NCBI GenBank assembly: GCA_947652605.1 | Contig: CANTFG010000129.1 | Location: 248,001-312,000 of the forward strand | DNA from: Elmis aenea | Taxonomy: Eukaryota; Arthropoda; Insecta; Coleoptera; Elmidae | DNA: 64,000 bases | Direction of reading: 5' to 3' | Shown: piece after piece, positions 5,346 through 42,230 of the stretch | Numbering within the stretch: position 1 is the stretch's first letter | Layout of the letters: each line of letters opens with the position of its first letter | Made by a program: the position numbers and the translations under genes | The notes under the pieces: generated by a model | The model's input: the letters and a program-made list of their open reading frames with translations, nothing else | What the model was told of the DNA's origin: nothing | The model's database searches: none

Positions 5346-5346
5346 A

Positions 5347-5632
5347 CAGGGTGTTTCTTAAATATTGCGAACAAAATCGGGAGGTGATTCCTTGGCGAAA
5401 ATTGAGGGGGGACTTTTAAATAAAAATTTTTCCTCAGACGTCTTCTTTCGGAGTTACATCCCCCTGAAGGGGAGCGGTAAAATTAGGTTTTCATTTTATT
5501 TCTCAAATTTGGATATAGAGAAGAATGCTATTTGGTAGATATTTTATGCTTATTAAAATGTTTCCCATAGTATTATTTTCAATGATCTCCCACCTACACA
5601 GGGGGTGAAAAGTGCGACCCCTGTTGATTTTT
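5347..5632 (+). repeat. Solo arm of a long-inverted-repeat mariner-type element
   Basis: It starts at TA|CAGGGTGTTTCTTAAAT and ends near GTGCGACCCCTGTTG. The same arm occurs in forward orientation at 24391-24690 and inverted at 24930-25194 and 15640-15932. Only one arm is present here, so the element has lost its centre and other arm. Confidence 0.8.
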
Positions 5633-8121: not shown

Positions 8122-9787
8122 TACTAGGAAGTCTATAAAACCATAATGTCACTTAAAAACACAAAATCAACAGGAGAAGATGAAATCCCAACAAACCTCT
8201 TAAAATATACTGCCGACTTAATATCTGGACCTCTAAGTCACATTATAAATCTCTCATTAAAAAATGGCATATTTCCTAACAAACTTAAATGTGCAAAAAT
8301 CAAACCAATTCACAAAAAAGGGGATTTAAGTGACATAGAAAACTATAGACCCATAGCCATCCTCACAAACATTAGTAAGATATTTGAAAAAATAATCTAC
8401 AACAGAATTGAAAATTACGTAGAACACTTTGGCTTAATAAACAACTCTCAAAATGGATTCAGAAAAGGCAAAACAACTACCCGCGCTATTTATATGGCAA
8501 TCCGAAATGTACTTCAATCCCTCAATAAAGACAAACACACCATGGTCATGTGTGTTGATCTCTCAAAAGCTTTCGATAGTGTTGACCACGAGATACTGCT
8601 AACAAAATTAGAACACTATGGTATACGAGGGACCGCCCATAACCTTATAAAATCTTATCTTTCGGAAAGAAACCAATATGTTGCCGGAAAAGACTCGTCA
8701 GGTAAAATTCTAAAATCTAACAAAAAGAAAATCAAAAAAGGAGTCCCGCAAGGATCAATCTTAGGCCCCCTGTTATACATACTGTACACAAATGATCTTC
8801 CAGTTTTTGCCAAAACTTTCCTTATACAATTTGCCGATGACACATCTGCTATTATTAGTGACTCGGATTCAAAAAATTCTGAACAAAAACTCTTTGACTG
8901 CTTAGGCCAACTCCAACTTTGGTTCACATTAAACAATCTAACCTTAAATGTCAATAAAACTCAAGTAATAAAATTTTCACAAAGTAAATTAACCTCCGAC
9001 ATAAAACTTAAAAACAATTCCACAACTATAAATGTTGTTAATAAAATATCATTTCTTGGTGTAGGTATTGACTCTAGACTGGACTGGTCATACCACATCG
9101 AACGCCTGTCACAAAGCCTGTCACGGTATCCTTTCGCACTAAAAAACCTAAAAAAATTAGTCAGTACAAACGCGGCCAAAACTGCATATCATGCGTATGT
9201 TGAATCTAAGTTACGCTATGCTATAATTTTTTGGGGTAACGCTAGTGACTCTGCACGCCTCTTTATTATACAAAAGCGATGTATAAGAACTATTTTTGGT
9301 CTAAACTACCGAGATCATTGTAAAGACACTTTTCGTGACAAAGAAATATTAACTTTTTACGGCCTATTCATTCTCGAAGCCGTCCTTTTCGTAAGAAATA
9401 ATTTTGATCTGTTTGAAGTGAATATAAGAAACCATGCAGCCAATACACGACATAAAAAAAATCTTAAGCCCGATTGCTTCAAATATACTTATCTTCAAAA
9501 AAATGTTGCCTCTATAATTATTGCAATATATAACAAATTTAATACATCACCTGAGAGTATAAAAAATCTACGCACTCCCGACTTGAAGAAAAGATTAAGA
9601 AATGTCCTAATTTCTAAAGCTTACTATGGAGTTAGTGAATACCTTAATGACGATTACTTTAAAAACTCCTTTAAGTAATTATAATTGTGTTGTATATATT
9701 CGTATATATGTGTATTTTTATATCATTACTGTGACATGTTCTACGCCTTTTTGGATTTTTCAGAACAAATAAAGACTACTACTACTA
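8122..9787 (+). mobile_element. 5'-truncated CR1/Jockey-like non-LTR element with ACT microsatellite tail
   Basis: Similarity starts at about 8128, before the first ATG of the ORF, so the copy is 5' truncated. A 3' UTR of about 100 bp contains AATAAAG and ends in a run of ACT repeats at 9774-9786, the simple-repeat tail expected of this group. ACTTCT occurs at 8116-8121 and again at 9788-9793 and may be a 6-bp target duplication, but that is short enough to be coincidence. Confidence 0.85.
8146..9678 (+). CDS. Reverse transcriptase domain of the CR1/Jockey-like element, N-terminally truncated
   Basis: An open frame of 510 codons encodes the RT used for target-primed reverse transcription. 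Visible blocks, in order, are KPIHKKGDLSDIENYRPI (about residues 55-72), GFRKGKTTTRAI (about 104), DLSKAFDSVDHEIL with a catalytic Asp (about 141), GVPQGSILGP (199-208), FADD (229-232) in place of the usual YADD, LNVNKTQ and FLGVGID. The C-terminal tail contains SKLRYAIIFWGN and KRCIRTIFGL, as in CR1/Jockey groups that lack RNase H. There are no stops or frameshifts, so this is the best-preserved retroelement coding region here and probably a recent insertion. The true protein would begin upstream with an endonuclease, which is missing. The reading frame reaches about 18 bp upstream of the ATG, so the ATG is simply an internal Met. Confidence 0.9.
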   Translation: MSLKNTKSTGEDEIPTNLLKYTADLISGPLSHIINLSLKNGIFPNKLKCAKIKPIHKKGDLSDIENYRPIAILTNISKIFEKIIYNRIENYVEHFGLINNSQNGFRKGKTTTRAIYMAIRNVLQSLNKDKHTMVMCVDLSKAFDSVDHEILLTKLEHYGIRGTAHNLIKSYLSERNQYVAGKDSSGKILKSNKKKIKKGVPQGSILGPLLYILYTNDLPVFAKTFLIQFADDTSAIISDSDSKNSEQKLFDCLGQLQLWFTLNNLTLNVNKTQVIKFSQSKLTSDIKLKNNSTTINVVNKISFLGVGIDSRLDWSYHIERLSQSLSRYPFALKNLKKLVSTNAAKTAYHAYVESKLRYAIIFWGNASDSARLFIIQKRCIRTIFGLNYRDHCKDTFRDKEILTFYGLFILEAVLFVRNNFDLFEVNIRNHAANTRHKKNLKPDCFKYTYLQKNVASIIIAIYNKFNTSPESIKNLRTPDLKKRLRNVLISKAYYGVSEYLNDDYFKNSFK

Positions 9788-15424: not shown

Positions 15425-15932
15425 CCCAATATGAACATAAACAAACCAGGACAACCACCAAAATGAATCGTTTTATATTGGAATATTTTTTAATGGAGCC
15501 TGTTCACTTATATTATTTTTTACTCAGAAACTGTAGGTTTTACGATAAAAGTTAAATAATAAAAATAGTTTCTAAATAAATTAAGCTTCGAAACAAAATT
15601 TTTAAATTGCAAAATTTTAACCTACCAAAAACTTCTGATTAAAAAACCAACAGGGGTCGCACTTTTCAGCCCCATGTAAAGGTGGGAAATGATTAAAAAT
15701 ATTACTATGGAAAACTTTTTCATAAGTATAAAACATCTACCAATAATCATTCTCCTACATTTATCCAAATTTGGGAAATAAAATAAAAACCTAATTTTAC
15801 AGCTCTCTTTTAGGGGGGGTGTAACTCCGAAAGGAAACGTTTAAGGAAAACATTTTATATAAAAGAACCCCCTTAATTTTTGATAAGAAATTACCTTCCG
15901 GATTTTTATGCATTTTTTTGCGAAACACCCTA
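15425..15932 (-). repeat. Partial copy of the CAGGGTGTTTCTTAAAT mariner-type foldback element
   Basis: The part from 15640 to 15932 is the inverted arm, ending CGAAACACCCTA. The part from 15425 to 15560 matches the spacer of the complete element at 24391-25194 in opposite orientation. A copy inserted in reverse and missing its other arm explains both. Confidence 0.75.
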
Positions 15933-19989: not shown

Positions 19990-20744
19990 TAACATACAAA
20001 CTGTTTAATGGAAATAATAAAGTAAAATATAAAGAAACTATTAATAAGGAACTAGAAAGAAGAAAAATAAAACCAGCTGAATTAAATACTGAACAATTAA
20101 GAAAAAGTTTCAAAGAAACTATCAACGATTCGGCCAAAAAAGTGTGTGGAGTATGCAAATCCATCAACAATAATAAACAAACAGATTGGTGGGATGATGA
20201 AATTAAGAAAAAGGTAAATACGAAGAAAAGACACTGACAGAATTACTTATCCAAAAAAAACACCAGAGAAATACGAAAAAGACAAAGAACAGAAAAAATA
20301 GTCAAAAACTTAAGAACAGAAGCAAAACAAAATTCATGGAAAGAATTTGGAGAAAAACTAGAGACAGACAGTAAGGGAAATCAGAAACTATTTTATAAAA
20401 TACTGAAAAATCTAAGATCAGACCGTAAACCCCAAATAATAACTATTAATGATAAAGCAGGAAATACCCTAACAGACGAAAAAGAAATAATGGAAAGATG
20501 GAAAGAATACTTTGAAGAATTATTGAATACAAACAATAAAGATTTGACACCACACAATGAAAGAAAAGAACAGACAAAAATCAATAAAGAAGAACAAGAA
20601 GACGGCATAACATTAGAGGAACTACAACAAGGATTAAAGAAATTAAAAAACGGGAAGACGCCAGGACATGACAGAATAACAAGCAAAATGATGAAAAATA
20701 TGGGACCTAAAGGAACACTTTTACTTCTGGAAGTCATGAACAAG
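19990..20744 (+). pseudogene. Non-LTR ORF2, endonuclease-to-RT linker; 5' half of a split element
   Basis: The sequence reads VKYKETINKELERRK and QLRKSFKETINDSAKKVCG (about 20021-20145), DWWDDEIKKKV (about 20183), then after a stop QNSWKEFGEKLE (about 20330), MERWKEYFEELLN (20490 on) and LEELQQGLKKLKNGKTPGHDRITSKMM (20617-20697). This is the linker and the start of the RT fingers. It ends at LLLLEVMNK and is then cut by the hAT starting at 20745. The reading resumes at 31986 on the far side of the hAT. Fragments of the same family lie at 44512-45296. Confidence 0.85.
20737..20744. repeat. Target-site duplication (left) of the 11-kb hAT
   Basis: TGAACAAG, identical to 31986-31993. The duplicated bases are part of the VMNK codons of the interrupted RT. 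Confidence 0.95.
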
Positions 20745-20769
20745 TAGGGATTGCAATCACGGGATTCGG

Positions 20770-20850
20770 TATCCCGGGATCCCGGGATCCCGGTCGATTT
20801 TTGGTCTCGAAAATCCCGGGATTTTAAATGTAGAATCCCGGGATTTTCGG
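20770..20850. repeat. Subterminal CCCGGGAT repeats, left end of the 11-kb hAT
   Basis: Several overlapping ATCCCGGGAT palindromes are mirrored near the right end (31908-31955). These are probable transposase-binding repeats, by analogy with other hAT elements. Confidence 0.75.
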
Positions 20851-20859
20851 GATTTAAAA

Positions 20860-21240
20860 AATTTAACTATAAGTACATTATTTTGTAAAAAAAATTGCTC
20901 ATAGTTGGTATCTACTCAACGTGAATAAGTTGAACGATGCAATTTTGCAAGTTTAAGCTTGTTTACGTCGCCGCTCGCCGTCTTATGTATGATAACAAAG
21001 TTTAAAAAAATTCTTGTACTAAGATAATAATCATCCTAATTTCTTTTATTTTTGTTACTTATAAAACAGTCTATTTTTTAAATTTTTAGTGAATTAAAGT
21101 TGTGCTTTGTTTGAGTTTTTAACAGTTTCAGCAAATTTATGTTTATGTAATTAAGTATTCTAATGTATAATAAGTTCAATTTCATTTATTTAAATGTTAT
21201 ATCTAATAATTCGATTATTTCTATAATAATAAAACATAAT
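20860..21240. other. Anonymous AT-rich interior of the 11-kb hAT
   Basis: No ORF or repeat is recognised. Confidence 0.5.
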
Positions 21241-21249
21241 AGGTACGGT

Positions 21250-21252
<3 letters not shown>

Positions 21253-21286
<34 letters not shown>
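21253..21286. repeat. TA microsatellite
   Basis: About 17 TA units, directly followed by the first ACTCGCCTCC motif (21301). Similar AT runs accompany the other two motif clusters (near 27258 and 31671). Confidence 0.9.
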
Positions 21287-21288
<2 letters not shown>

Positions 21289-21300
21289 CACGCCTATCTT

Positions 21301-21552
21301 ACTCGCCTCCATACGTACAAAGGACGCACAGGCCTCCACCTTAAGGGATCGATTAATCTGTGTGTATTCTGCAGAAAATAATTAAATAATGTAGCACTAA
21401 TGCCGGTGGCAAAAGAGGGGAAAGGATTTTTCATTTTTATTATATACAAAAAAAGTGATAAACACAAAATAGTAACTGAACTCCACTCATAGAATGGTTA
21501 ACTCGCCTCCGGAGTATATAAAACACTAAAGATGTATGTTAAAGTTGCCTCC
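21301..21552. promoter_or_regulatory. Motif cluster A: ACTCGCCTCC-type sites
   Basis: Perfect ACTCGCCTCC occurs at 21301-21310 and 21501-21510, with relatives AGTTGCCTCC at 21543-21552 and GGCCTCCAC near 21331. These are G+C-rich islands in AT-rich DNA. The same motif recurs in clusters B and C of this hAT. Whether it is a protein-binding site is inference. Confidence 0.5.
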
Positions 21553-21999
21553 AGCAACGTTGCCATCATTCTGCAAGCTTAGTAGCATTGAGAAGCTATG
21601 TATCATATCCCAATCGGTGAATATATGCTTGACGCGCGAATTGTAAACAATCAAGTAGGTGGGTAATTTCGATTGTGATTGTTGGATAATTCGTGTCAAT
21701 TAATAGTTTTGAACTATGTACGTAATATTTTATTTTAATAACGCACCGTAGGTCACGTATTTGTTAAACCTTCAACTGAACAAATTATATGCAAACTTTT
21801 TAGTGACAGTTATGTAAATTATAAAGGAGATATTTTAATTATACCGATTTTGACTTATCAATATTTTTACATACAGGATGTCTTTTTTTGATAGTATCAG
21901 GGATGGAAAACGTAACGTAACGATACCCGATAACGTTATAATAACGATTCAACTTTAATTTTTTATACAATAACGTAACGATATTTTTATAACGTTATA

Positions 22000-24154
22000 C
22001 AGGGTGGTGCTTTTTTCGATGCTCACCATTGCTATCTTGGAAACGGTAAGAGATACAAGGTCGTTTAAATTAGAGAAAAGTTGTACATTTTTATGGCGAT
22101 TAAAAATCTGACAAGAAATCCTGGATATTTTGATTCGTTTTTGTTTTATTACAAAAAAACTGAAAAATGTGATTTTAGAAAAGTATTATTATCTTCCCTA
22201 CCACTGACTGTATTTCATTTAAACTTGGTCACTCTATGTTTTTGACCGTCCTGGGTTTGATGACGTCAACAGAAATTTTCTAAGCCTTCTAGATTTCAAG
22301 TTGCGATAGTCAACTTTTTTATTTCTTATGGCCGCCATATTGGATTTTTGCACCATCAGACAGACAAAAAAATTAGCTTTTCAAATTGGTAACCAAAATA
22401 CCTTTTTTCTTTCAAAAAACTTGTTGAAATTTGAAAATTTGTATAAATAATCTACAAAATCGAGAATGCTCTGAAAAACAATTGAAACTATCATATCAAT
22501 AATAGTGACAGATTGCGTGCAAGTGACGTACGTAGAGTTTCTTTATCGTCTTTTTTGATTATTAAGATGTTTACGAATGAAGAAAAGCAGGAAATGTATG
22601 ATTTCTACATTCGAAACCGTAAAAACTCTCTTTAAGCGTCTGAAAATTACGCAAATTTATATCCAGAGAGAAAGAGCAACCCCACAGGACAATGTTTACG
22701 AGGATTTCAAGAAGTTTGGGTAATTATGGCATGTTTAAAAGACCGCGAGGGCCGTATTGGAAAAGGATTAATGTTAATGAAGTGAATGTGTTGGCTCAAA
22801 TAGCAATTAATCCAGAAAACTCCACCCGGAAAATTGCTTAAGAGTGTAGTATTAATGATGCATATGCCAGAAAAATAATAAAAAAACATAACTACCACGA
22901 TTATAAATTCTCAAGGGTAAAAACTCTTCATCCTGGTGATACTAACAGATGATTGAACTTTTGTTATTGGTTTCGGGAAAAACTGCAACAAGACCCACAT
23001 TTTTCCAGAAAAATACTATGGACTGACGAGTCCTTATTCACAAACTCGGGAATGTTTAACAGGAAAAATGTTCATCATTACGCTACAGTGAATCCCCATT
23101 TAATAAGAGAGACTAGGCCGCAAATTCGATATTGGCTGAACGTATGGGCTGGTCTTTAAGATAATACGATTCTGGGTCCCTTTTTCATCGATGGACATTT
23201 GGATGGGCCTGGATATTTAAGATTCTTGGAAACAAATTTAGAAGATATGTTAGATGAATTGCCATTATTAACCATTCAAAATCTTCAATGGTTTCAGCAA
23301 GATGGAGCTGGTCCTCACAACGCCCGAATTGTAAGAGAATATTTAAATGCATGCTTTCAAAATTGGCTTGGTACGTTTGGTCCTGTTTATTGGCCTCCAC
23401 GATCGCCATGTTTAACGCCCATGGATTACTTTTTGTGGGGCAATGTAAAACATGTTGTTTATGCAACCCCCACGGATAATATTGAACATCTTCGTCGTAA
23501 AATAAAAAATGCATTTGACTCAATTCCGCGACAGTATCCTAAAGGCAGTGGACGAAATGAATTTAAAAACTGACCTCTGTATAATACATAACGGCGGACA
23601 CTTTGAACAGTTTAAATAATTACTTATATCTGGTGTTTTAAATTTATTTTCAATTTGTTATCATTAGACCAATAAAATGTTCAGTCTTTTATTTATATCA
23701 TAGTTTCAATTTGTTTTTCAGAGCATTCTCGATTTTGTAGATTATTTATACAAATTTTCAAATTTCGACAAGTTTTTTGAAAGAAAAAAGGTATTTTGGT
23801 TACCAATTTGGAAAGCTAATTTTTTTGTCTGTCTGATGGTGCAAAAATCCAATATGGCGGCCATAAGAAATAAAAAAGTTGACTATCGCAACTTGAAATC
23901 TAGAAGGCTTAGAAAATTTCTGTTGACGTCATCAAACCCAGGACGGTCAAAAACATAAAGTGATTAAGTTTAAATGAAATAGAGTCAGTGGTAGGGAAGA
24001 TAATAATACTTTTCTAAAATCACATTTTTCAGTTTTTTTGTAATAAATTCTCAATCGCCATAAAAATGTGCAACTTTTCTCTAATTTAACCGACCTTGTA
24101 TCTCTTACCGTTTCCAAGATAGCAATGGTGAGCATCGAAAAAAGCACCACCCTG
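22000..24154 (+). mobile_element. Mariner-type element with inverted repeats of about 460-500 bp
   Basis: It begins CAGGGTGGTGCTTTTTTCG and ends with the inverse, flanked by TA on both sides (21998-21999, 24155-24156). The left arm runs to about 22498 and the right arm from about 23695. The right arm lacks about 38 bp present in the left. The transposase pseudogene lies between the arms. The insertion site is inside an AACGTTATA repeat of the enclosing hAT. Confidence 0.92.
22567..23619 (+). pseudogene. Mariner-type transposase, frameshifted and catalytically altered
   Basis: It opens MFTNEEKQEMYDFYIRNRKN and then LYPER, the N-terminal helix-turn-helix (DUF4817-like) that binds the inverted repeats. 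A stop and frameshifts break it near 22633-22690. It continues as FTRISRSLGNYGMFKRP, NPENSTRKIA and KIIKKHNYHDYKFSRVKTLHP. A further stop precedes the DDE core: ILWTDESLF (first Asp, about 23026), WFQQDGAGPHNARIV (second Asp, about 23300) and WPPRSPCLTPMDYFLWG (about 23391-23440). In the last block the family normally has SPDL, and here Asp is replaced by Cys, so the third catalytic residue is lost. The spacing from the second Asp is about 35 residues. A short frameshift leads to the C-terminal GGHFEQFK before the stop at 23617-23619. The copy is dead several times over. Confidence 0.85.
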
Positions 24155-24390
24155 TATAACGTTATAATAACCGATAACGTTTCATTAAAAGTTATTTTAT
24201 ATCGTTATTTTCTATAAATTAAATTTTTATATGGCAATCTTTTTATTTTCAGAAGATATAATATTTTGTCTCTATTTTAAAAATTAAAATGAAAATAATA
24301 ATATCTCAACGTAATTTTGTACTATTTTTTAAATTTACTTTTCAGATTCCAAAAATAATTTCAGAGTTACAATTAATTATTATTTTTGTA

Positions 24391-25194
24391 CAGCATGTTT
24401 CTTAAATAATGCGAAAAAATTGTGGAGGTGATTCCTTATCGAATATTAAGAGGGGTCTTTCATATAATTTTTTTTTCTTTAGGATCTTCTTTCGGAGTAA
24501 CACCCCATTAAAGGAGATCGGTAAAATTGGGTTTTTAGTTTATTTCTCAAATTTGGGTTTATGTAGGAAAATGATATTTGGTAGATGTTTTATACTTATT
24601 AAAAGGTTTCCCATATTAATATTTTTAATCATTTCCCATCTTCACAGGGGGTTGAAAAGTGCGACCAATGTTGTTTTTTTTATTAGAACGTTTTGGCAGG
24701 TTGAAATCTAGCAATGTATTTTTTTTTTGAAAACTTGATTTATTTAGAAGTTTTTTTTTTCTTTAATTTTTTTCTTTAAACCTACAGTTTTTTGAATGAA
24801 TATGAACCATCAAATATTCCAATATAAAACGATTCATTTTGGTGGTTACCATGGTTTGTTTATGTTGTAGGATTTACGAGAAAAACTAAAGAATAAAAAA
24901 ATGTTCTAAATAAATTAAACTTACAAAAAAAAGTTTAAATCAACAGGGGTCGCACTTTTCAGCCCCCTGTGGAGGTGGGAGATGATTAAAAATATTACTA
25001 TGGGAAACCTTTTAATAAGTATAAAACATCTACCAAATATCATTATCTTACATTTATCTAAATTTGAGAAATAAAATGAAAACCTAATTTTACCGATCCC
25101 CTTTAGGGAAGACGTCTAAGAAAAATTTTTTATATAAAAACCCCACTTAATCTTCGATAAGGAATCACCTCCCGAATTTTTTCGCATTATTTAA
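24391..25194. mobile_element. Foldback (palindromic) mariner-type element, CAGGGTGTTTCTTAAAT family
   Basis: The left arm is 24391-24690 and the inverted right arm about 24930-25194, with a spacer of about 240 bp. The right tip is missing about ten bases. No transposase is visible. Single arms of the same family lie at 5347-5632 and 15425-15932. Confidence 0.85.
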
Positions 25195-25333
25195 GATAAT
25201 TTATGTAACGTTATATAACATAACAATTCATTTTTTTAATGTTATTTATAACGTTATGTAACGAAAACCAATAATAAATAACGTTATTCAATAACGTAAC
25301 GATTTAAAACGTTATTCCATCCCTGGATAGTAT

Positions 25334-25746
25334 TATGAACAGCTAATCCCACTCAACATTTCTAATCTAATATTAAACAATTAAACAATTAAGAGAATTA
25401 AAAAAAAAGAAAAATTAAATTTTTTTCTTAAAAAACCAGATACCTATATTAAAAAACGAATAACGTTTCATTACTAGTTAACTATTAAAAATATTTATTT
25501 AACAATAAAATAAATAACTAACTAGCTCTTATTTCATTCGGGTAAACTATCTCAAAAATCTCCATTTAATAAACCCTGATACACAAGGTACGAAAAATCA
25601 ATTCTTCTTATAAACATTTGAATTTTCAAAATATTTAAATTTTTAATCACTTTACTAATAAACTATAATTTTAAAATTTTTTTCTATCTAAATAACAAAA
25701 CAAAAAAATCATTTAATTAAAACAAATAAAAATAAATTAAAAAATT
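25334..25746 (-). pseudogene. Nuclear copy of mitochondrial 16S rRNA, 5' part
   Basis: Read on the minus strand it contains the conserved insect 16S 5' signature GTACCTTGTGTATCAGGG (about 25573-25590), AATAAGAGCTAGTTAG (25515-25530) and AACTAGTAATGAAACGTTAT (about 25463-25482). It lies next to tRNA-Val and 12S in the ancestral arthropod order. The 3' part of 16S is absent. It begins immediately beyond the target duplication of the nested hAT. Confidence 0.85.
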
Positions 25747-25816
25747 CAAATTAAATTGAATTGCACAATTAATTTTTTAATGTAAATAAAAAAACTTTCT
25801 AACAAGCTCTAATCTG
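25747..25816 (-). tRNA. trnV: Mitochondrial tRNA-Val(UAC) copy in a nuclear insert
   Basis: A 70-nt cloverleaf can be drawn on the minus strand. The acceptor stem pairs CAGATTA with TAATTTG (seven pairs, one G-T). The anticodon TAC is at 25782-25784 in an AT-rich loop. The D arm begins GAGCTTGTTAG. It lies exactly between 16S and 12S sequence, as in arthropod mitochondria. It is very unlikely to function in the nucleus. Confidence 0.85.
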
Positions 25817-26480
25817 ATCATTCTAGGTACACTTTCCAGTACACCTACTTTGTTACGACTTATCTCAAATTAAATGAGAGCGACGGGCGATATGTACATA
25901 TTTTAGAGCTTAAATCAAACTGCTTAATTAAACATTTTTACTTTCAAATCCAATTTAATGATAAATATTTCAATTATTAAACCATTTAAATAAATTTATT
26001 GTAACCCATTTCTTCTTTAAATTTTTATTTTAAAAATTGAACATTAAAATTCTTATAAAATATTTAAAACAACGACGATATACAAATTATTAAAGTAAGT
26101 AAAGTAAATCTCGTCAAAAGTAATATTTAATTTTTAAATTACTACAAAAATTATTGTTCCTATTTCTTTTGAAAAGAAAAGTTAGTAACCCCTTCCACAA
26201 ACTGATTTTTTTTAAATTCCAAGTTCCAATCTACATCACCTATTTCTTTTGTCAATAAATAATGACTATTACAGCAAAAGTTGTTTCATTTTATACCATA
26301 ACATTTGAACAAATAAATTATAATCATTTTACACAATTTTAGTATCACTTAGATCGGATGCTTCGAATTTTCTAACAAACCAATACATAAACAACAAATT
26401 GCATAAAAATTAACTAACATTTGAAGAGTTTCAACTCAAAACCCGCTTTAAATTTTTCACCAGTTTTTTTTAACTGTAGA
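25817..26480 (-). pseudogene. Nuclear copy of mitochondrial 12S rRNA, 3' half
   Basis: The 3' end is unmistakable: on the plus strand ACTTTCCAGTACACCTACTT and TTTGTTACGACTT (25830-25860), then GAGCGACGGGCGATATGTAC (about 25877-25896). ATTGTAACCCATT (about 25997) and AAACAACGACGATATACAAA (about 26068-26087) are further conserved blocks. Similarity weakens beyond about 26200. The usual block around GGTATCTAATCC is at best degraded near 26340, and GCTGGCAC was not found. The right boundary is therefore uncertain. Confidence 0.85.
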
Positions 26481-26913
26481 AAAAATAATTTATATTATTT
26501 TTTTATTTAATTTAATAATCAAGTTCAGTAACGTTTTTAAATTAATACTTTATTACGAATATCTAGAAACAGAATTAAGATAAAATTCGTTTGTTTTCAT
26601 CATCTAAATTGCAAATATTTATTAGCAGATTTTGGATCTAAAAAGCCACATAGCGGGCTTTAAATCTAGACACCTCATTTGTTAGATGTTAAAAGATTAA
26701 TTTCTTATTAATTGCTCTAATTTGGAAGTTGTTTACTAAGGATTACTCGTTTTTAGTAAGTATTGATCAATTTGCATCCAGAATATAATTTTGTGTGATA
26801 CCACTAAGTCCTAATTTTAAATGTGCTCCCGCCACTTATTTTACGCTATTCCACTTAAAACCCTCTTCAAACACCACAATGGTTATTTCTGATAAGCATA
26901 CATACAAAATACT
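26481..26913. other. Anonymous DNA, possibly the decayed 12S 5' half
   Basis: AT-rich, with no confident similarity. It may include the diverged rest of the mitochondrial insert. Confidence 0.35.
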
Positions 26914-27434
26914 AATGTGCCTCCTTGCGCGTTTGCCAAGTTTCGGACGCAAGAAAGTGTGTTGTGTGTGTGGAGGTCTGTCAGTCAAGCATGTCTATGG
27001 ACATGTATATGTGTATTAGTTGGTGGCGCCACCTAATAACATTTCTGTTAACTCAAGTGTATAACTGTATATGTATAACCATCGAACTAGCCTCCACCAT
27101 AAAATTCGCTATGCGCTTGTCCGTGATGTCTTTAAGCATTTAAATCACATATACACGGGGATACCTAGTCGCCTCCGATTTTACTTACTCGCCTCCGTTT
27201 TCGGAGGCGAGTAATACTTTTACACGTATACATACGGAGGCAAGTTTGACGTTTTGCATATATATATATATATGATCTCTGAACTAAGTGGCGTCCATCA
27301 ACATCCCTCGCACATTACATGTGGCGTCCCGTTACTAAGTGGACTCCGTATACGGACGCCACATAGTTTCTCTATTGAAACGGACTTTAAAGCACCGGTA
27401 CTGTGACTGGAATTAATTTTAGAGGGACGCCACA
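26914..27434. promoter_or_regulatory. Motif cluster B: ACTCGCCTCC and AGTGGCGTCC sites
   Basis: At least ten related G+C-rich sites lie in 520 bp. ACTCGCCTCC at 27187-27196 is paired with its inverse GGAGGCGAGT at 27203-27212 (stem with TTTT loop). AGTCGCCTCC is at 27167-27176, GGAGGCAAGT at 27235-27244, AGTGGCGTCC at 27286-27295 and TGTGGCGTCC at 27319-27328. AGTGGACTCC at 27337-27346 is paired with GGACGCCACA at 27353-27362, and a further GGACGCCACA lies at 27425-27434. A perfect palindrome GGTGGCGCCACC lies at 27022-27033. An AT run (27258-27272) sits in the middle. Such density suggests binding sites or a structured RNA/DNA element; the function is unknown. Confidence 0.55.
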
Positions 27435-29288
27435 AATCCGAGATTTTGTACAGTTTGAATATTATAGTTGGACCGTTGGCCGTTCTTGGATCGTGCGCTC
27501 GCGTCGCGTGTATATCGGAAGGGTATATATATTTTTTCGATTCACAGTGGAAGTGGCATCCAGGATATCGGCAATATATGTTTGTGTGAATTGTAAATTA
27601 AATATGCTGTGCGGCAACCATTAAAAAATACAAAATTAGAGCAATTTGAAATGTTGTTGATTCTGTAACTTTTACTGCCATTATTAACGTTTTTAATGAT
27701 TAACAACAATAAAGTTTGATAACAAACTGACAGTAGTGTCATGTACTATCATGATTTTGTGAACGTTATTTTAGTTATTATATTAATATTATTTAAAACA
27801 ACCAACCTTACATATAGAAATGTTTTGAAATGCAGTTTTCTATTCTGCATCCGAAAATTTCAAAAATACAGAATTTTATTGATAGGTATTTAAAAGTAAT
27901 TTTGTTGCGGTTTATAATGTAATTTTGTTGGAAAAGGTTTAAATTAGCTTCTACTACACATTTTTTGACAATATTCATTTAAACCTTATTCCCATTTTTT
28001 TAATGAAAATAATAATAATAATAATAATAACTAACTATATGTATATGAATTTATAGGTACTAACGATATAAAAAAAGTAGAATACAAATGTATCTAACGA
28101 TGGTTGATACAGCTTAAGTAAATTCCAAACAGGAAAGGTTTGAAAATGTACAAAAAAATTATAATGTAGAGTGAAGCCGTTTTTCAAAATTTTTTATTTG
28201 TGATTAAAGTCCGTGCGTGACTTAAAACTGATTATTTTTGTGTAAAATTAATATCGCCGTTTTTATGATAATTTACGGGCATCAACACAATATTTAATAA
28301 ACTTGAAGGCTTTGAAAATATTACGAAAATATGTTTTAAATAAAGGACACAAAAAAGTATTTGTCATTATTTATTGTTCCATTAGTTTTCAAATACATAA
28401 ATAAGTTTATATTGCTTGGAAAAGAACCGAGTCGACTTTTTGGTGAGTTTGAAGCATTGTTATTTTTAGTGTTGCACTTGTTCATTGTTACATTTTATGG
28501 GGGTGTCATATAAATTCGACACTATGATTTATTTTATTGTTGTGACAAACTAATTTGTCAAAAAATGGTAGAAGGTTTTTAACGCAAAATTACTGTGTAA
28601 AGCGCAACAAAATTACTTCCAAATAAAAATACATTTAAAGTATGTGTAATGCTATAATTCAAGCAAAGTGGTGCTACTTTAAATATGTCATTATTCACTC
28701 CACAAATTTTGAGTTAAAACGTACCAAAAATATTTCATACATTGTCTATGTATAAAGATATTGCCTTTTAATTAAAAATTATTTTAAGATATTTTTTTAA
28801 CTAAATAAATACATCCATACATTTTGTTAAGTTACGGTACTAATGTGTGGTATATGTTAACTGTTTCGTTCACTTATTTTAATTTGTTAATCACATATAA
28901 CTACTATTGAATAATAAAGCTGATTTAAAATTTCAACCCTATTGCCGTTTATTTAAGGAGTTTATTGACTTTATGGTAAAAAATTTAAAAAAAAGGTAAG
29001 TAATGTTTAATTAGGTAAGCAATGCATATTTATTTTTTTATGTGATATTAGCCCGTACTTGTAAGGCGTGTTATTTTATATTTTACCTCATCCTGTTTCC
29101 TATATAACTTTTTTTTCTGACCTACATTTCTTACCTAAATTACCTAATATGTTTATCTCCATGAATTTGGCCCGAACTTAGGAAGCACACAAAAAAAATC
29201 GATAAACAAAACTTCGAAAAAATGAAAAGGTTTTATTACTTAAAGTATAGTATTAACTAATACTGTTAAAACAATTATATACCCTATA
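27435..29288. other. AT-rich interior of the 11-kb hAT
   Basis: No transposase or gene is recognised. There is an AAT microsatellite at about 28008-28029. The 73-codon frame at 27403-27624 has no motif and overlaps cluster B. Confidence 0.5.
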
Positions 29289-30228
29289 CCGGGTGATTTA
29301 GTTTGACTGTAGCATCCCTATAACTTTTTAATTATTGAAAATTACCCCCAACAAACCTTATATTTTTCGAAACGGCGACAAATTTTCTATCAAGTGATGT
29401 GCATTTGTCATCTCTACGATGACGTATGTCAAATTCGCGATAGGCAACTGTTTTTTTTTTTAATTACATAGTATACATGTTTTTGTTGATTCGGATAGAA
29501 AATGTAATTCTGAATCCGACCATGTATTAAAAAAGTATGCATACATAAGAAAATTTTCGAGAAAAATCAGTTTAAAGTTTATTCAAATTGTAGCAAACAG
29601 TCTATTTAACATGACAAAAAAACTATCGGATCTTAAATATTATACTATAACAATCAATGGAAATATATTAAAAATAAATTTTTAGTAAAAATAAAAGCAA
29701 ATAATAAACGTGTATTAAAGCAGTTACAAATAGAGGACAACTGCGTTTGGAAGCGGGGGGCGGTCACTTTGAACATATTAAAGTCTAATTTTTTATGTCA
29801 ACGTTAATTAATTGTTTTTTATTTTATTAAAAACTAATTTTTAATACATTTCCATTGGTAGTCATAGAGTAATTTTCAAAATTTGATCATTGTTTTTTGT
29901 TATGTTAAATAGACTGTTTGCTATAATTTGAATAAACTTTGAACTGATTTTTCTCGAAAATTTTCTTACTTATGCATACTTTTTTAATACATGGTCGGAT
30001 TCAGAATTACATTTTCTATCCGAATTAACAATAAAATGTATACTATGTAATTTAGGAAAAAAATTAGTTGCCTATCGCGGATTTGACATACGTCATCGTA
30101 GACATGACAAATGCACATCACTTAATAGAAAATTTGTCGCCGTTTCCAAAAATATAGGGTTTGTTGAAACTATTTTCAATAATTAAAAAGTTATAGCACC
30201 CCTATAACAGTCAAACTGAATCACCCGG
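29289..30228. mobile_element. Foldback mariner-type element, CCGGGTGATT family, 940 bp
   Basis: Arms of about 430 bp (29289-29720 and 29800-30228) begin CCGGGTGATTTAGTTTGAC and are flanked by TA. The short spacer keeps the very end of a transposase, reading QLRLEAGGGHFEHI (about 29739-29780). That is the C-terminal motif also seen as GGHFEQ in 22567-23619 and GKHFEHLL near 34340. It is thus an internally deleted mariner of the same broad group. Confidence 0.88.
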
Positions 30229-30230
30229 TA

Positions 30231-30662
30231 TTGATTTTTATATAAGGAGTTCATTTGCATTTTAAATTTCACAAAAACAATAATTTTACTGCCAGGATAA
30301 ATACTTGTGAGTTTTGATGATAAACTTATTTACTAATATTCATTGCGTTATTCCCTTAAATTACAAAATTTAAGTCAGTAGCAGGTTAGGCACACTTTTA
30401 TGATAGGGCTTTAAACCACACATAAAATACAATTCGTTTCATTCAGAACTAAGGCAGTAAATCTCCAATGATTTTTTTTGAATAAGTACTAAAAAAACGA
30501 CATGTCGTAAATCTTATTTGTACATTACCCTTTTTACTTCAATTTTTTTTTTTTTAAAACCCCTTCGGTCTTGAACATTCGTAGCGCTTGTAATAGCTGT
30601 CTTTACTTCAGTTCTTTTTCGTAATAAATTTTTTTAAAAACAGTTGTAAACATATCCCAAAT
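30231..30662. other. No recognised feature
   Basis: AT-rich DNA with a T run at about 30542-30556. Confidence 0.5.
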
Positions 30663-31050
30663 CAGTGTTCTCCCCAGAATTTATTTTTTGCCGGGCGCCC
30701 CCCCTCGCCCCCAATGAATTTTCGGTCTTATTATTTTATAATTACATATAATTTTGTATTATTAGTTTTTAAATTTACACAAATATTTTGTTCCAAACAA
30801 AATTATTTATTTGTAATAAATATTGCATTTTAAACAATAATATAATACAATTTAATTTAAGGAATTTTAAGAATTTAAAGAAACTTTGTTTAACTAAATA
30901 AAAAACAAACTATTCGCTAAAAGAACCTTCGTCCTCTTCAACTTCCTGGTTTGAAACCAAAGTTGTTTTAGATTGCTTTTCATTGTTTTGAGCACTTTCT
31001 TGTTTTTTAAAAAAACTAAATAAATTAGTCTGATTTGACTTTAAAGTTAT
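30663..31050 (-). mobile_element. Possible hAT remnant with one terminal repeat and an N-terminal coding piece
   Basis: CAGTGTTCTCCCCAGAA at 30663 followed by GCCGGGCGCCCCCCC resembles a hAT end. On the minus strand, 31045-30910 reads TLKSNQTNLFSFFKKQE followed by an acidic stretch VEEDEGSF and a stop. This is compatible with the N-terminus of a hAT/ZMYM-like protein, but the piece is short. No second terminal repeat is visible. Confidence 0.33.
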
Positions 31051-31059
31051 TATTCATGT

Positions 31060-31390
31060 CTGAAGTATAAAATAAAATTAATAATTAACAGTGTGGTATC
31101 TTTATATGTTCAAAACTTATTGATTTAATGGAAATATGACATAATTTTTTTGCTAAACAATTTATAGATTTGATAGTGGCCAATAAATAATAAGCAGTAA
31201 CAGTTGTTCTCTATTACTTTAACTATAATATACAGAGGAAAACGCATACACACATACAAGTACGCTGGATGCACACACATTGTTAAAAAACACAAGAAAA
31301 TTTTGACCAATTTACATTAATTTAAATATTTAGAAATAGTTAGTACGGTGTTATACCCGTACTAAAGCTAATGAAAAGCAGAACAACGCA
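31060..31390. other. No recognised feature
   Basis: AT-rich interior of the large hAT. Confidence 0.5.
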
Positions 31391-31690
31391 GGACGTCACT
31401 TGGTACGTAATTTTTTAAAGTGTATACGTTGCGGACGCCTCATAATTGGTATTTTATATAGAGGTTATTTATTGCGTTGATTATACGGACTTCAAATATC
31501 ACGCAAATTGTATGAAAATTTGTATCACAATTTTGTATTGTACCATCGCCATCTGTTTGTAAAGGTGATAAAACGGAATATACATTAAACAGATTTCATA
31601 TATTCCAGCTCAATCTAGTGGACGCCAAAATACTGCAACACATGTTGGACGCCACATGGATAGTGAGATGTATATATATATATATATATT
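31391..31690. promoter_or_regulatory. Motif cluster C and TA microsatellite
   Basis: GGACGTCACT is at 31391-31400, GGACGCCTCA at 31433-31442, GGACGCCAAA at 31620-31629 and GGACGCCACA at 31647-31656, followed by a TA run at about 31671-31690. The orientation is opposite to cluster A near the left end. The pattern is therefore roughly mirrored about the element, as subterminal sites would be. Confidence 0.5.
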
Positions 31691-31907
31691 TCAATTATTA
31701 TTAACATCTTTGCACCTATGATATAATTAAAAGATTAAAACAAATTAACAGAAATTATAGAGGAAACAAATTAAATAAAAAGTTAATAAAAATAATTGGT
31801 AATTACTAAATTATTCAATAATTATGTAAATCATTTGTAATCAAAAAATATATATACACTGCATTGTCTTCTGTTTTTAAGCAAATACTTCACATTATAT
31901 AATATAA

Positions 31908-31955
31908 TCCCGGGATCCCGGGATTAAAACATCTGCAATCCCGAAATCCCGGGAT
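31908..31955. repeat. Subterminal CCCGGGAT repeats, right end of the 11-kb hAT
   Basis: ATCCCGGGATCCCGGGATT and a further ATCCCGGGAT mirror those near the left end. Confidence 0.75.
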
Positions 31956-31985
31956 CGCAAAATTTGATCGGGATTGCAATCCCTA

Positions 31986-31993
31986 TGAACAAG
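31986..31993. repeat. Target-site duplication (right) of the 11-kb hAT
   Basis: TGAACAAG, identical to 20737-20744. Confidence 0.95.
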
Positions 31994-35879: not shown

Positions 35880-38510
35880 CAGGGTTGAGCAGATTTAAAT
35901 CAATTGATTTAAATCATGATTTAAATCAAGTGATTTTTTTAAAAAAATCATTGATTTAAATCACGATTTAAATCAAGTGAAAAAAAAAACATCTATTTAA
36001 ATCACTTATTATATGAGTAGGTAATAAAACATTTATAACAAAACAAAATTTTATTTTCTCAAATAAAAAAAACATTAGGTATATGGTATTTATGTATATA
36101 AGTATTAAAAAAAAAACAACAGTTCTTATATGTGTATACGTATTAAATACATACTTATACGTAACGTAACGAAACGTAATTCATTTAAAATAATATATAA
36201 TAATATACATTTATAAATTTTTGGTATTGTAATGTTGGAATAAAAATACCAGTTTTGCAGCCTTTTCAGTTCCCAGTTTATTTCTTATTGTCGAATGGAC
36301 CAATCCAAATGTTGAAAAAATTCTTTCAACTGAGGCCGAAGAAGTTACACTGCACATTAGTTGTGTTAATATTGGCAACACTTTATTAATATCGGAAACA
36401 TCTTTTTGTGATTTTCACCACTGTATTGGAGTAACATTATTAATAATTTCCTCACTAAACATAACAGATTTAAATGGATCAGATTTAGCTTCAAATTTTA
36501 TTATTATGTGTAATAAACCACTGTGTGGGTAACTTTCTGCTGCTACTTTTAAAGCTGCGTCTTTTTCATTATATTTTAAAGGAAATTTTGTTTTTCTAGG
36601 GTCTAATAAATAAGCCAAAAAATGGTCCGGTGTCAAAGCTTGAGTATATCGTTTTTGAAATGCAGCCATTTGTTTAATATTTAATGTAATAGTATCATCA
36701 AAAACAGCCTCAAGTTCTTTCCATGCTTCTACAGCATCAGCTAAAAATGCATCTGTTCTTTGTAATTTGTCTAAAGTTACGGAAATTGGTTTTATTATTT
36801 TTAAAAAATCTTTTGCCCATCGTTTCAGTTTAATGTTAGACACCTTTTGGAATATTAAAGAATCAATTTGGTCTTTGTTCTCTTCACAAATTTGTAACAA
36901 TTTCTGCCATTCTTGTGTAAATATTTCCAAGCAATCTGCAAGAGTATTCCATCTTACGTCTTGAGGCAATATTAACGCCTTACCTCCGGCAGCTTTATAT
37001 TTAGCACTTGCCAAATGATTATTACGGAAATACTTAACAACATGCACAACATTTTCTTTAATATCGCGTATCTGCAAGTCCTTGGAAAGTAAATTTAGAA
37101 TGTGTGCTGAACATCCATAGGTTATCACATTTACATCGGTTACTTCATTTTTAATGTTTTCTCTCATTTTGCTCATATTAGCTGCATTATCTGTAACGAA
37201 ACTTGAAACTGCACAATTATATTGAGTTTTGCACTTATTTATTAAACTGATTGCTTTACTTGTTAAATAATCGGCTGTATGTGCATGTCCTGATGTATCT
37301 ATACTTTCAAGGAGGAAGGTTGATCCATAATCTGTTGTTACAGTAGCGCAAATTATCGGTTCGTTATGTACATTTGACCAACCATCTAAGGAAAGGCAAA
37401 CCGAACTATTTGTTAATTTTGCAAGACATTTTTCTTTTTCTTCCATGTACACTTCATTTAATAATGTTGAAGATACAGCGAACCTAGAAGGTGGTGAATA
37501 ACCTGGCCGTAACATTTCGATTGCTTTTATCACTTCTGGTTGTTCGATACATCTGAAACTACTATTTGTCGCATAAATAGCTTTTGCGATTTGTCTATCA
37601 AGATTTTTCTTTAACTCGTTAGAAGTACGCACTACAAATGATTTCATTAATAAATTTTCAGTCATTTCTTTTTTTTTTTAGCAGGTGGTGAGCTTATATT
37701 TGTATTTGTATCCATTCTAGACGTACTAGGTTGTGGATCAAAAAACTCTTTCGGTTGACTTGTTTCTATGGTGGTAGGATTAGAATCTGTGTCAGTATCT
37801 TCTGTATTACATTCAGTAACTTCATTCATATGCATTTGTTTCTTCTGACATTTTTCACGGTGTGCTTTTAATCTTTGTACCAGACCTTGTATTTCTTCTT
37901 TGCAATATTTACAAACTGCTCTGCTCCCAGCTTTCCCTTTCAATTTGTTTGATTTTTCTATAAAATGTTGCCAAACACTATCCCTTTTCCTTCCTGACAT
38001 TATGTTGCGTTTATTTATGTGATGTGTACACGTTTGCTAACTAAAATGAACTGAATAACAGAATCTGGGATACCCTTACATACAAAACTGCATTTGCATG
38101 TTTAGACAAGTATTTTCAGGCATAGAATTCGATCACAGGTCACATATAGTTGATGATGAATAGCAAGCATGGTTTTGTAGATCATATACTACACTTTAAA
38201 ATGTAAATATAATCATACTGTTTATTGCTTGTTAAGACAAAGACTTAATTATATATAACATCACTATTTAGCACTGATTTTTTTCGAAATTTTTATTCAT
38301 TATATTTAATGTTTTATTTTAACAAAAATTCTCCAATGAATTAAATATATTGGTTATTAAATATATTAGCACAAAACAGAAATAGCATGCAAATATGAAC
38401 ATTTCATTTAATTTTAAAAAAATCTGATTTAAATCAAAAAAATCTGATTTAAATCAAATAAATCGATTTTTTTGATTTTTTTTTTAAAATCATGATTTTT
38501 ATCAACCATG
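35880..38510 (-). mobile_element. Full-length hAT transposon with near-intact transposase, 2631 bp
   Basis: The ends are CAGGGTTGAGCAG and, reverse complemented from the right, CATGGTTGATAAA. The perfect 8-bp duplication GAGTAAAG is at 35872-35879 and 38511-38518. The subterminal regions are rich in GATTTAAATC palindromes (about 35890-36000 and 38420-38470). One gene fills most of the interior on the minus strand. A truncated end of the same family is at 16246. Confidence 0.95.
36211..38000 (-). pseudogene. hAT transposase with BED zinc finger; one frameshift and one stop
   Basis: Residues 1-112 (38000-37665) carry a BED finger: W-x2-F near the start, then CKYC and LKAHREKC as the C-x2-C and H-x5-C ligands. 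The frame shifts in a run of A's (about 37670-37680), where the first frame ends and the next starts at overlapping ATGA. The second frame (37665-36418) contains the RNase H-like core: CLSLDGWSN (first Asp), FVTDNAANM (second Asp), YGCSAHILNLL and DVRWNTLADCL. An in-frame TGA at 36415-36417 follows QW. The same frame then continues as KSQKDVSDINKVLPIL and the hATC dimerisation segment SASVERIFSTFG and STIRNKL, ending at TAA 36211-36213. The total of about 595 codons is normal for the family. With only two lesions this is one of the youngest coding elements here. Confidence 0.93.
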
Positions 38511-41706: not shown

Positions 41707-42230
41707 TCTTACGGTATTAAAGTTATCATCCTATATGCGGTATATATTGCAAAAGAGGTACCGACGCTTGGGCGTCTTTTGCTAAAATTGACAAAATGGC
41801 TTCGACCATGTTAGCTAAACATGGCCAGCTAATTTGAGAACCATGACTTTCATATATTTCTAGTTATTTTATCTTATACGGGGTGTTGTCTTACGGTATT
41901 AATGTAAATATCCATATATGAGGTATATATTGCAAAAGAGGTATCGACGCTTGGACGTCGTTTGCTAAAATTGACAAAAACGGCTTTGACTATGTTAGCT
42001 AAACATGCCCAGGTAGTTTTAGAACATTGGCTTTAATAATTTTCTAGTTATTGTATCATATACGGTATTCATGTTATCATCTACATATGCGTTATATATT
42101 GCAAAAGAGGTACCGACGTTTGGACGTTCTTTCGCTAAAATTGACAAAAACGGCTTGGGCCATGTTAATTAAACATCCCAGGTAATTTTAGAACGCTGAC
42201 TTTAATAATTTTCTAGTTATTGTATCTTAC
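41707..42230 (+). repeat. Three-copy tandem repeat, unit about 172-181 bp
   Basis: Units start near 41707, 41888 and 42061. Each contains TATATTGCAAAAGAGGTA, a GGACGTC-like word, GCTAAAATTGACAAAA and TTTCTAGTTATT. It is flanked on both sides by copies of one MITE and is unrelated to the satellite at 54 kb. Confidence 0.88.

What the first reader, a model, noticed from the sequence alone, without database searches (positions are those of the whole stretch)
20737..31993. An 11.2-kb hAT with perfect ends, no transposase and an empty-site paralogue in the same window
Seen: 14-bp exact terminal repeats, exact 8-bp duplication TGAACAAG, mirrored CCCGGGAT subterminal repeats. The two flanks join into one RT reading, and a paralogue at 44523-44545 shows the unfilled site. 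Known: non-autonomous hATs are usually far shorter. Inferred: this copy either mobilised as a large cargo element or grew by later insertions. The interior still leaves several kilobases unexplained after the recognised nested transposons are removed.
Basis: partly seen in the sequence, partly recalled or inferred. Interest (0 to 1): 0.75.

Follow-up and report, generated by a model that had tools for sequence, protein, structure and literature searches.

The report
Microsatellite-targeting transposon array inside a transposon
The 11-kb "giant" transposon in this insect genome is really an ordinary 0.8-kb transposon whose inner run of TATATA was hit by two large mobile elements that insert almost only into TA repeats, and which may be moved by a tyrosine recombinase.

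Summary
The hAT is real: 14-bp inverted ends, exact 8-bp duplication, 204+207 exact end matches in the host genome against 3 for the reversed control. It is not a large cargo hAT. Of 36 listed end-pairs 23 are about 0.8 kb, and such copies have a central (TA)n. The window's interior fills that (TA)n with two units, X1 (6.0 kb) and X2 (4.4 kb), each bounded by (TA)n, with 40 and 24 near-identical copies genome-wide. Of 48 ends read, 47 abut three or more TA units and 43 five or more; 82 kb of other DNA held no (TA)5. X1, X2 and two further families, X3 and X4, stand end to end in non-nested arrays and share spaced subterminal motifs of family-specific sequence. X1 carries a mitochondrial-rRNA-like cargo. 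X3 keeps a C-terminal remnant of a beetle tyrosine recombinase; 8 of 56 recombinase-like loci lie within 10 kb of X1/X2 (0.18 expected; MULE control 0 of 74). Shown: composite structure and (TA)n targeting. Inferred: movement by the recombinase, probably through circles; its coding elements could not be read, so that link is unproven. Closest known: plant SaTar/MuTAnT arrays, Cryptons, microsatellite-integrating nimaviruses.

The parts
20737..20744 (.). Left target-site duplication TGAACAAG of the hAT
20745..21252 (+). Left arm of the ~0.8-kb non-autonomous hAT (14-bp TIR, CCCGGGAT subterminal repeats)
21253..21284 (.). (TA)16 tract at the hAT arm / X1 junction
21286..27257 (+). X1: 6.0-kb (TA)n-inserted unit; 40 left-end matches genome-wide, window included; motif ACTCGCCTCC near both ends; no long ORF of its own
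21898..25325 (+). hAT-2 (TIR CAGGGATGGAA, TSD GATAGTAT) nested in X1 and carried by it
   Evidence: read; 21290-23380 collinear at about 98.8% in most of the 19 other X1 copies read there, whole X1 in L016 at 97.7%
22000..24154 (+). Tc1/mariner-like element with long inverted arms (TA duplication) nested in hAT-2
   Evidence: family by my reading, the 137-aa frame inside has no Pfam match
24389..25207 (.). Fold-back MITE nested in hAT-2; relatives at 5343-5642 and 15434-15918
25334..26600 (-). Mitochondrial-like segment (12S 3' end, tRNA-Val, 5' part of 16S; limits approximate); amplified with X1
   Evidence: rRNA motifs recalled; Rfam found nothing
27259..27272 (.). (TA)7 between X1 and X2
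27276..31672 (+). X2: 4.4-kb (TA)n-inserted unit; 24 full-length left-end matches, window included; motif AAGTGGCGTCC near both ends; core shared with X3
29286..30231 (.). Inverted-repeat MITE with TA duplication (CCGGGTGATT ends) nested in X2
31671..31688 (.). (TA)9 between X2 and the right hAT arm
31689..31985 (+). Right arm of the hAT with 14-bp TIR
31986..31993 (.). Right target-site duplication TGAACAAG

Best explanation
SHOWN: a ~0.8-kb non-autonomous hAT with a central (TA)n jumped into a retrotransposon, and that (TA)n holds two mobile units, X1 and X2. X1-X4 are families of large (3.5-6 kb), non-coding or nearly non-coding elements found in (TA)n tracts, including the tracts beside other X elements, and so they form non-nested arrays. 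INFERRED: they are internally deleted or cargo-filled relatives of an element that encodes a beetle-type tyrosine recombinase with N-terminal zinc motifs. The recombinase would bind the spaced subterminal motifs of its own family (each family has its own motif), synapse the two (TA)-flanked ends, release a circle with TA repeats at the joint, and recombine that circle into a genomic TA tract. This would give insertion without a target duplication and tandem growth without nesting. My confidence: composite structure and (TA)n targeting 0.95; recombinase as the mover 0.55; circular intermediate 0.4.
For: X1 left end: 40 matches at 96-100% (40 scored of 41 candidates), 38 of them over all 591 bases. 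TA units abutting the ends read: X1 left 18 of 21 with five or more, X1 right 15 of 15, X2 left 10 of 12; at least three units in 47 of 48 (two of the 48 are the window's own); 82,257 bases of other DNA hold 5 tracts of (TA)4 or more and none of (TA)5. Between different loci the 160-bp neighbours beyond the TA tracts match only where they are X elements. In 9 of 48 ends the next sequence is another X element; by nominal lengths 6 pairs of listed X1/X2 copies are directly adjacent; L078 reads X3-(TA)-X4-(TA)-X3-(TA)-X1. Motifs fall at like distances from 7 of 8 reference ends: 15-21, 45-54, in several 61-87 bp. X3 holds a C-terminal coding remnant with 22 matches in the genome, four of them (33-48% identical) in open frames of 678-758 aa, and 66% identical to a beetle protein. 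That family has tyrosine-recombinase features: Phage_integrase in 7 of 29 (best E 1.6e-5, under Pfam's cut-off); R410 28 of 28, K455 29 of 29, R530 27 of 28, H556 28 of 28, Y565 27 of 27 rows with a letter there; Foldseek's first six PDB hits are XerH, XerD and a staphylococcal integrase, probability 0.99-1.00. 8 of 56 recombinase-like loci lie within 10 kb of the 64 X1/X2 copies, 0.18 expected if uniform; MULE control 0 of 74 within 20 kb. At C6:21825738-21826224 an X3 end stretch (bases 126-206, 96%) runs straight into a match to the recombinase family. X2 and X3 share a collinear core at 89-93%.
Against: No recombinase-coding copy could be read, so it is not shown that one is bounded by (TA)n and X-type ends. 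X1, X2 and X4 hold no recombinase remnant; among the loci held the only ones with a match are X3 stretches. The Pfam matches are below the curated cut-off, and no fold match reaches E 1e-3 (best 1.3e-3), from a model of mean pLDDT 74 that is poor around the active site. The histidine usual in the second catalytic box is a serine or threonine here. Six of the 8 nearby recombinase-like loci are only 24-30% identical to the query, two of the 8 flank one and the same X2 copy, several belong to multi-copy groups, and one (C127) has 11 stops: they are neither independent nor proven recombinases. Nearness may partly reflect shared repeat-rich regions. A TA duplication cannot be told from pre-existing repeats, so a DDE enzyme is not excluded. 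X4's left end did not pass my 7-mer detector, which was written after the motifs had been seen and also fired on 3 of 30 unrelated flanks.
Confidence: 0.6

Rival explanations
1. X1-X4 are non-autonomous elements moved by a cut-and-paste DDE transposase with (TA)n preference, such as a MULE (as plant SaTar/MuTAnT) or a Ginger2-like enzyme.
For: (TA)n-targeting MULEs form the same non-nested arrays in plants (PMC5907723, PMC4486113). A Ginger2-like DDE enzyme is credited with (AT/TA)n insertion of crab endogenous nimaviruses (PMC10871703, passages). X1 and X2 have imperfect inverted ends (my reading). The genome has 74 MULE matches.
Against: The 12 best-scoring MULE loci (of 74) have no (TA)5 tract within 1.5 kb and no motif cluster; 0 of 74 lie within 20 kb of an X1/X2 copy. 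Ginger2 was not searched.
Confidence: 0.25
2. No dedicated enzyme: (TA)n tracts recombine with one another (homologous recombination, template switching) and spread whatever lies between them.
For: The boundaries read are (TA)n with one exception, and X1, X2, X3 occur in different orders and orientations; the SaTar authors proposed homologous recombination of circles.
Against: The units have constant ends with spaced inverted motifs, 15 of 15 X1 copies read at both sides end at the same bases, and copies are 96-100% identical over the stretches compared. Passive recombination should give varied units.
Confidence: 0.12
3. A true cargo hAT: the 11.2-kb element or its 6.8-kb relative moves as a hAT with its load, with X1 flipped later.
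For: Both have perfect ends and exact duplications, so the hAT could have jumped after loading. L016 is the window's nearest of 13 copies compared in both arms: 99.0% left (next 98.8%), 94.7% right (next 93.7%).
Against: X1 is inverted in L016; the margins are small and the arm trees do not group the two with support; X1 sits in unrelated (TA)n elsewhere. I raised this from 0.03 to 0.05 after noting the arm identities again.
Confidence: 0.05

Closest known systems
SaTar arrays and MuTAnT/TAFT/Micron elements of plants
   Same: Insertion into (TA)n; [quoted passage not shown] imperfect inverted ends (PMC5907723 abstract, section 13, section 16 part 1; PMC4486113 abstract, results, discussion)
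   Different: The non-autonomous plant units are about 0.2-1.7 kb and tied to MULE transposases; here 3.5-6 kb, in an insect, with no MULE link seen and a tyrosine-recombinase remnant in one family
Cryptons (tyrosine-recombinase DNA transposons)
   Same: A tyrosine recombinase as the enzyme; non-autonomous derivatives; circle and short identical sequences proposed for recombination (PMC3212892 passages)
   Different: Animal Cryptons are reported without terminal repeats or C-terminal domain; this family has N-terminal zinc-like motifs, an extra C-terminal domain, and the X elements have motif arrays at the ends and (TA)n targets. DUF3504 did not appear among Pfam matches of the 10 proteins scanned
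Endogenous nimaviruses of crustaceans
   Same: Giant mobile elements that insert into microsatellites; their telomere-repeat-specific tyrosine recombinases also typically carry a C2H2 domain (PMC10871703 passages and section 10)
   Different: Those are virus genomes with many genes; the (AT/TA)n-specific ones use a DDE enzyme. Sequence relation of the two recombinase families was not tested

Membership tests
hAT (outer element) | 8-bp target duplication and short inverted ends | tested here: met
   exact in window, 17 of 20 copies perfect
hAT (outer element) | hAT transposase | tested here: not met
   no frame inside long enough; remnants not searched. Non-autonomous; assignment rests on ends and duplication
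SaTar-type microsatellite-targeted arrays (X1-X4) | units flanked by (TA)n, stacked without nesting in one another | tested here: met
   at the junctions read:
MULE (X1-X4) | ends shared with a MULE transposase-coding element | tested here: inconclusive
   12 of 74 loci read (1.5 kb each side), none with (TA)5 or a motif cluster; 0 of 74 within 20 kb; ends farther out not read
MULE (X1-X4) | 8-11-bp target duplication | tested here: inconclusive
   hidden by TA repeats; the one odd site (L030/L050) lies in a TATCGATA repeat
Crypton-like tyrosine-recombinase transposon | element encodes a tyrosine recombinase with R-K-R-H-Y | tested here: inconclusive
   met for the mostly beetle proteins; X3 holds only a C-terminal remnant, X1, X2 and X4 none
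Crypton-like tyrosine-recombinase transposon | recombinase gene bounded by the recombining ends | not tested
Crypton-like tyrosine-recombinase transposon | YR phylogeny groups it with Cryptons | not tested
   no Crypton reference was fetched
NUMT | nuclear copy of mitochondrial DNA | tested here: inconclusive
   12S 3'-end motifs unique in window, tRNA-Val call between 12S- and 16S-like parts; Rfam silent; ARAGORN mt mode gave 18 hits in the window and 125 in 200 shuffles, 3 of those Val(tac)

The most novel reading that the evidence does not exclude
Beetles carry a lineage of DNA transposons moved by a zinc-motif tyrosine recombinase whose crossover site is the (TA)n microsatellite itself. 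Each family has diversified the sequence but kept the spacing of its subterminal binding motifs, so recombinase and ends have split into separate specificities, and arrays record successive site-specific integrations. One family has taken on a mitochondrial rRNA segment and spread it to about 40 nuclear sites.
Probability: 0.5. Interest if true: 0.85.

Novelty: new variant of a known kind. Interest (0 to 1): 0.7.

Why it matters
Stacked, microsatellite-targeted transposon arrays were described in plants and tied to MULEs; a parallel in an insect, with units several times larger and a possible recombinase route, would suggest that the strategy arose more than once and by another chemistry. It also gives a natural set of recombinase-motif families for testing how site specificity evolves, explains an apparently giant hAT without a cargo-hAT, and warns that NUMT counts can be inflated by a transposon that carries one. 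In my listed searches of the paper library I saw no report of (TA)n-targeted tyrosine-recombinase transposons or SaTar-like arrays in insects; that covers only the held open-access papers, those terms and the rows listed.

Tried and rejected
Cargo hAT: not preferred, because X1 is inverted in L016 and occurs in unrelated (TA)n, though L016 is the window's nearest copy by a small margin. MULE as mover: no support, not excluded. Rfam on the mitochondrial-like part: nothing; patterns for mitochondrial 12S in viral contigs and genome contigs and for the hAT end in viral contigs: no hits. Paper search for the hAT end sequence: none. Pfam and PDB sequence searches with the 53-aa X3 peptide: nothing. 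Pfam with a 43-aa open reading at about 30,903-31,030 in X2, which looks like a PCNA-binding motif to me (recalled): nothing. A protein search with the nearby hAT transposase at 36-38 kb, made to learn the host's name, gave only a widespread family. A paper search on NUMT-in-transposon gave nothing to the point in its listing. X4 copy number could not be obtained. One search repeated and was wasted. A KDZ family search did not complete. Searches with the longer X2 and mitochondrial stretches did not complete and were replaced by shorter ones.
Full report
OBSERVATION. The ends, the 8-bp duplication and the CCCGGGAT repeats are exactly as described. The genome that holds the window (516 Mb, 302 contigs; window at C126:248001-312000) has 204 forward and 207 reverse exact copies of the 14-bp end against 1 and 2 for the reversed control. 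I fetched 20 members chosen for sizes from 719 to 6,827 bp; 17 of 20 have a perfect 8-bp duplication. By my pairing of the first 100 places listed (of 411), 23 of 36 pairs are 719-830 bp. The family is therefore mainly a small non-autonomous hAT. The claimed empty-site paralogue shares 116 bp of right flank at 87% but only 7 bp of left flank beyond the duplication.

WHAT FILLS THE ELEMENT. In six of the seven fetched copies of about 0.8 kb the left arm (window 20745 to about 21250) runs through a short, partly imperfect (TA)n into the right arm (about 31690 to 31985); the seventh, L027, lacks that part. In the window the (TA)n is replaced by (TA)16, a 5,972-bp unit (X1), (TA)7, a 4,397-bp unit (X2) and (TA)9; these are the only three tracts of six or more TA in the 64 kb. 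Locus L016 is another hAT copy, with its own duplication CTCTTACC, holding X1 alone in the same (TA)n, inverted, at 97.7% over 6.06 kb. In both arms L016 is the window's nearest of 13 copies compared, but by small margins (99.0% against 98.8%; 94.7% against 93.7%), and the arm trees do not group the two with support. I read this as two separate insertions of X1.

X1 AND X2 ARE MOBILE. A query of 591 bases from X1's left end has 40 matches at 96-100% (40 scored of 41 candidates, window included), 38 of them full length. I read 21 of the 40: 20 are preceded directly by three or more TA units and one (L030) by a TATCGATA-type repeat. For 15 of the 21 I took a stretch 5.7-6.5 kb away: 15 of 15 hold the other end, at the same base and in (TA)5 to (TA)16. 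X2's left end has 24 full-length matches at 97-100%, window included, among 48 matches (40 scored of 245 candidates, so a lower bound); 12 of the 24 were read and all 12 abut three or more TA units. The 160-bp neighbours beyond the tracts match one another across loci only where they are X elements. Control: 82,257 bases of other DNA (12 MULE loci plus the window outside the element and the satellite) hold five tracts of (TA)4 or more, 40 bases in all, and none of (TA)5. In the X1 copies read over 2 kb the left part of nested hAT-2 with its mariner is present, at about 98.5-99% in most, 97.1% in L036 and L048, and rearranged in L033; L049, of the 96-97% group, has an extra 1.2 kb inside. So the unit moves with its nested passengers.

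ARRAYS. Next to X1 or X2, past the TA tract, stood X1, X2, X3 or X4 at 9 of 48 ends (one of the nine is the window's own X1-X2 joint), and a hAT arm at one, the window. From listed coordinates and nominal lengths six X1/X2 pairs are directly adjacent, in different orders, one of them head to head. L078 is a run of four: X3-(TA)-X4-(TA)-X3-(TA)-X1. None of these joints is nested. X3 (4.3 and 5.2 kb in the two copies read) and X4 (3.5 kb) were found this way. A 358-base query from X3's left end has 9 matches, six of them full length.

SHARED ARCHITECTURE. Each family repeats its own short motif near both ends: X1 ACTCGCCTCC, X2 AAGTGGCGTCC, X3 AAGTSGAGATC, X4 ACAAATTCACCTC. In 7 of 8 reference ends the first copy lies 15-21 bp from the TA tract and the second at 45-54; in several, partly inverted copies follow at 61-87 and at about 150-280; X4's left end differs (49, 79, 95). 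A 7-mer detector that is given no motif, but was written after I had seen the motifs, fired on 7 of the 8 reference ends and on 3 of 30 flanks that are not X elements. X2 and X3 share a collinear core at 89-93% but differ at both ends.

THE LIKELY MOVER. Near its right end X3 has a 53-codon open piece. It has 22 matches in the genome, four of them in open frames of 678-758 aa at 33-48% identity, and is 66% identical to the end of a 467-aa protein of the scarab Holotrichia oblita. That protein has 49 further relatives above threshold among 7,996 scored candidates; those with a name are beetles except one planthopper (that they are beetles is from my knowledge). In an alignment of 29, seven match Phage_integrase (best E 1.6e-5, under Pfam's cut-off) and the residues expected of a tyrosine recombinase are kept almost without exception, apart from serine or threonine for the second-box histidine. 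A model (mean pLDDT 74.4, low around the active site) finds XerH, XerD and a staphylococcal integrase as its first six PDB hits, best E 1.3e-3. N-terminal zinc-finger-like motifs are visible in the sequences (my reading; weak Pfam zinc-finger matches). Holotrichia's protein lacks the catalytic stretch. Of 80 genome matches to it I dropped 5 X3 remnants and merged 19 neighbouring pieces by hand, leaving 56 loci (one of them, C3:61797928, later proved to be beside an X3 end); 8 of 56 lie within 10 kb of the 64 X1/X2 copies (0.18 expected if uniform), none of 74 MULE loci within 20 kb. Six of the 8 are 24-30% identical to the query and were not themselves tested for recombinase residues. At C6:21825738-21826224 X3 end sequence runs into a match to the family, with one stop. 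tblastn of 50 family members over the window and the loci then held found matches only in X3. I could not read the recombinase genes themselves.

MECHANISM. A tyrosine recombinase typically acts on sites of two inverted repeats around a short spacer, and Cryptons were proposed to move as circles (PMC3212892 background passage). TA repeats flanked by inverted family-specific motifs fit that. A DDE enzyme with a taste for TA, as in plant MULEs, fits the targets but has no candidate here. Passive recombination between TA tracts fits the arrays but not the constant ends.

THE MITOCHONDRIAL-LIKE CARGO. Inside X1, minus strand, lie a sequence that I recognise as the 3' end of insect 12S rRNA (GTACATATCGCCCGTC and AAGTCGTAACA occur once each in the window), a tRNA-Val call and a 16S-like start. 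ARAGORN's mitochondrial mode is permissive (18 hits in the window; 125 in 200 shuffles), and Rfam found no rRNA, so the identification rests on the recalled motifs and their order. A 401-base piece has 45 candidates, 40 scored, at 93-100%; 38 of the 40 lie within 8 kb of a listed X1 left end, one of the other two is an X1 beside X2 (L069), and C2:60099111 was not looked at. All 40 scored matches cover the piece nearly whole; none could be told to be the host's mitochondrial contig.

LITERATURE READ. PMC5907723: abstract, section 13, section 16 part 1 of 2. PMC4486113: abstract, results, discussion. PMC10871703: passages and section 10. PMC3212892: passages. PMC13359780: two passages; its only mention of TA microsatellites is the MuTAnT title in its reference list. 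Others were seen only as search listings.

Noticed in passing
36415-38036 (minus): A second hAT-type transposase: DUF659 and a BED finger in two overlapping frames, with GATTTAAATC-like repeats around it; a 99%-identical protein exists in a public assembly.
   Followed up: partly
54147-64000: 183-bp satellite, about 54 copies at 95%, running to the window's end.
   Followed up: no
41892-42226: Two-copy 169-bp tandem repeat.
   Followed up: no
8128-9678 and 52422-52916: Reverse-transcriptase frames (RVT_1); the first is open for 516 codons.
   Followed up: no
30663-31050: In X2, a sequence that looks like a hAT end (CAGTGTTCTCCCCAGAA) beside a short open reading with a QxxLxxFF motif; possibly a truncated third hAT (motif recalled).
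   Followed up: partly
27887-28625: Old inverted-repeat element inside X2; the start of this region has pieces at 71-82% elsewhere in the genome, some in inverted pairs.
   Followed up: no
L013, L014, L018, L020: A 2.7-2.8-kb class of the hAT with the left arm split and rearranged relative to the window's arms; could be a subfamily nearer to an autonomous source.
   Followed up: no
Genome C8:18949059-18983399: Within 35 kb: X2, X1, a recombinase-like open frame, X3, X4, X3 and X1.
   Followed up: partly
Genome, places: Groups of recombinase-like open frames of 536-539 (5 loci), 750/699 (4) and 868 (5) codons with equal or nearly equal scores, which suggests recent spread; another cluster of matches at C2:41.3-41.9 Mb.
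   Followed up: no
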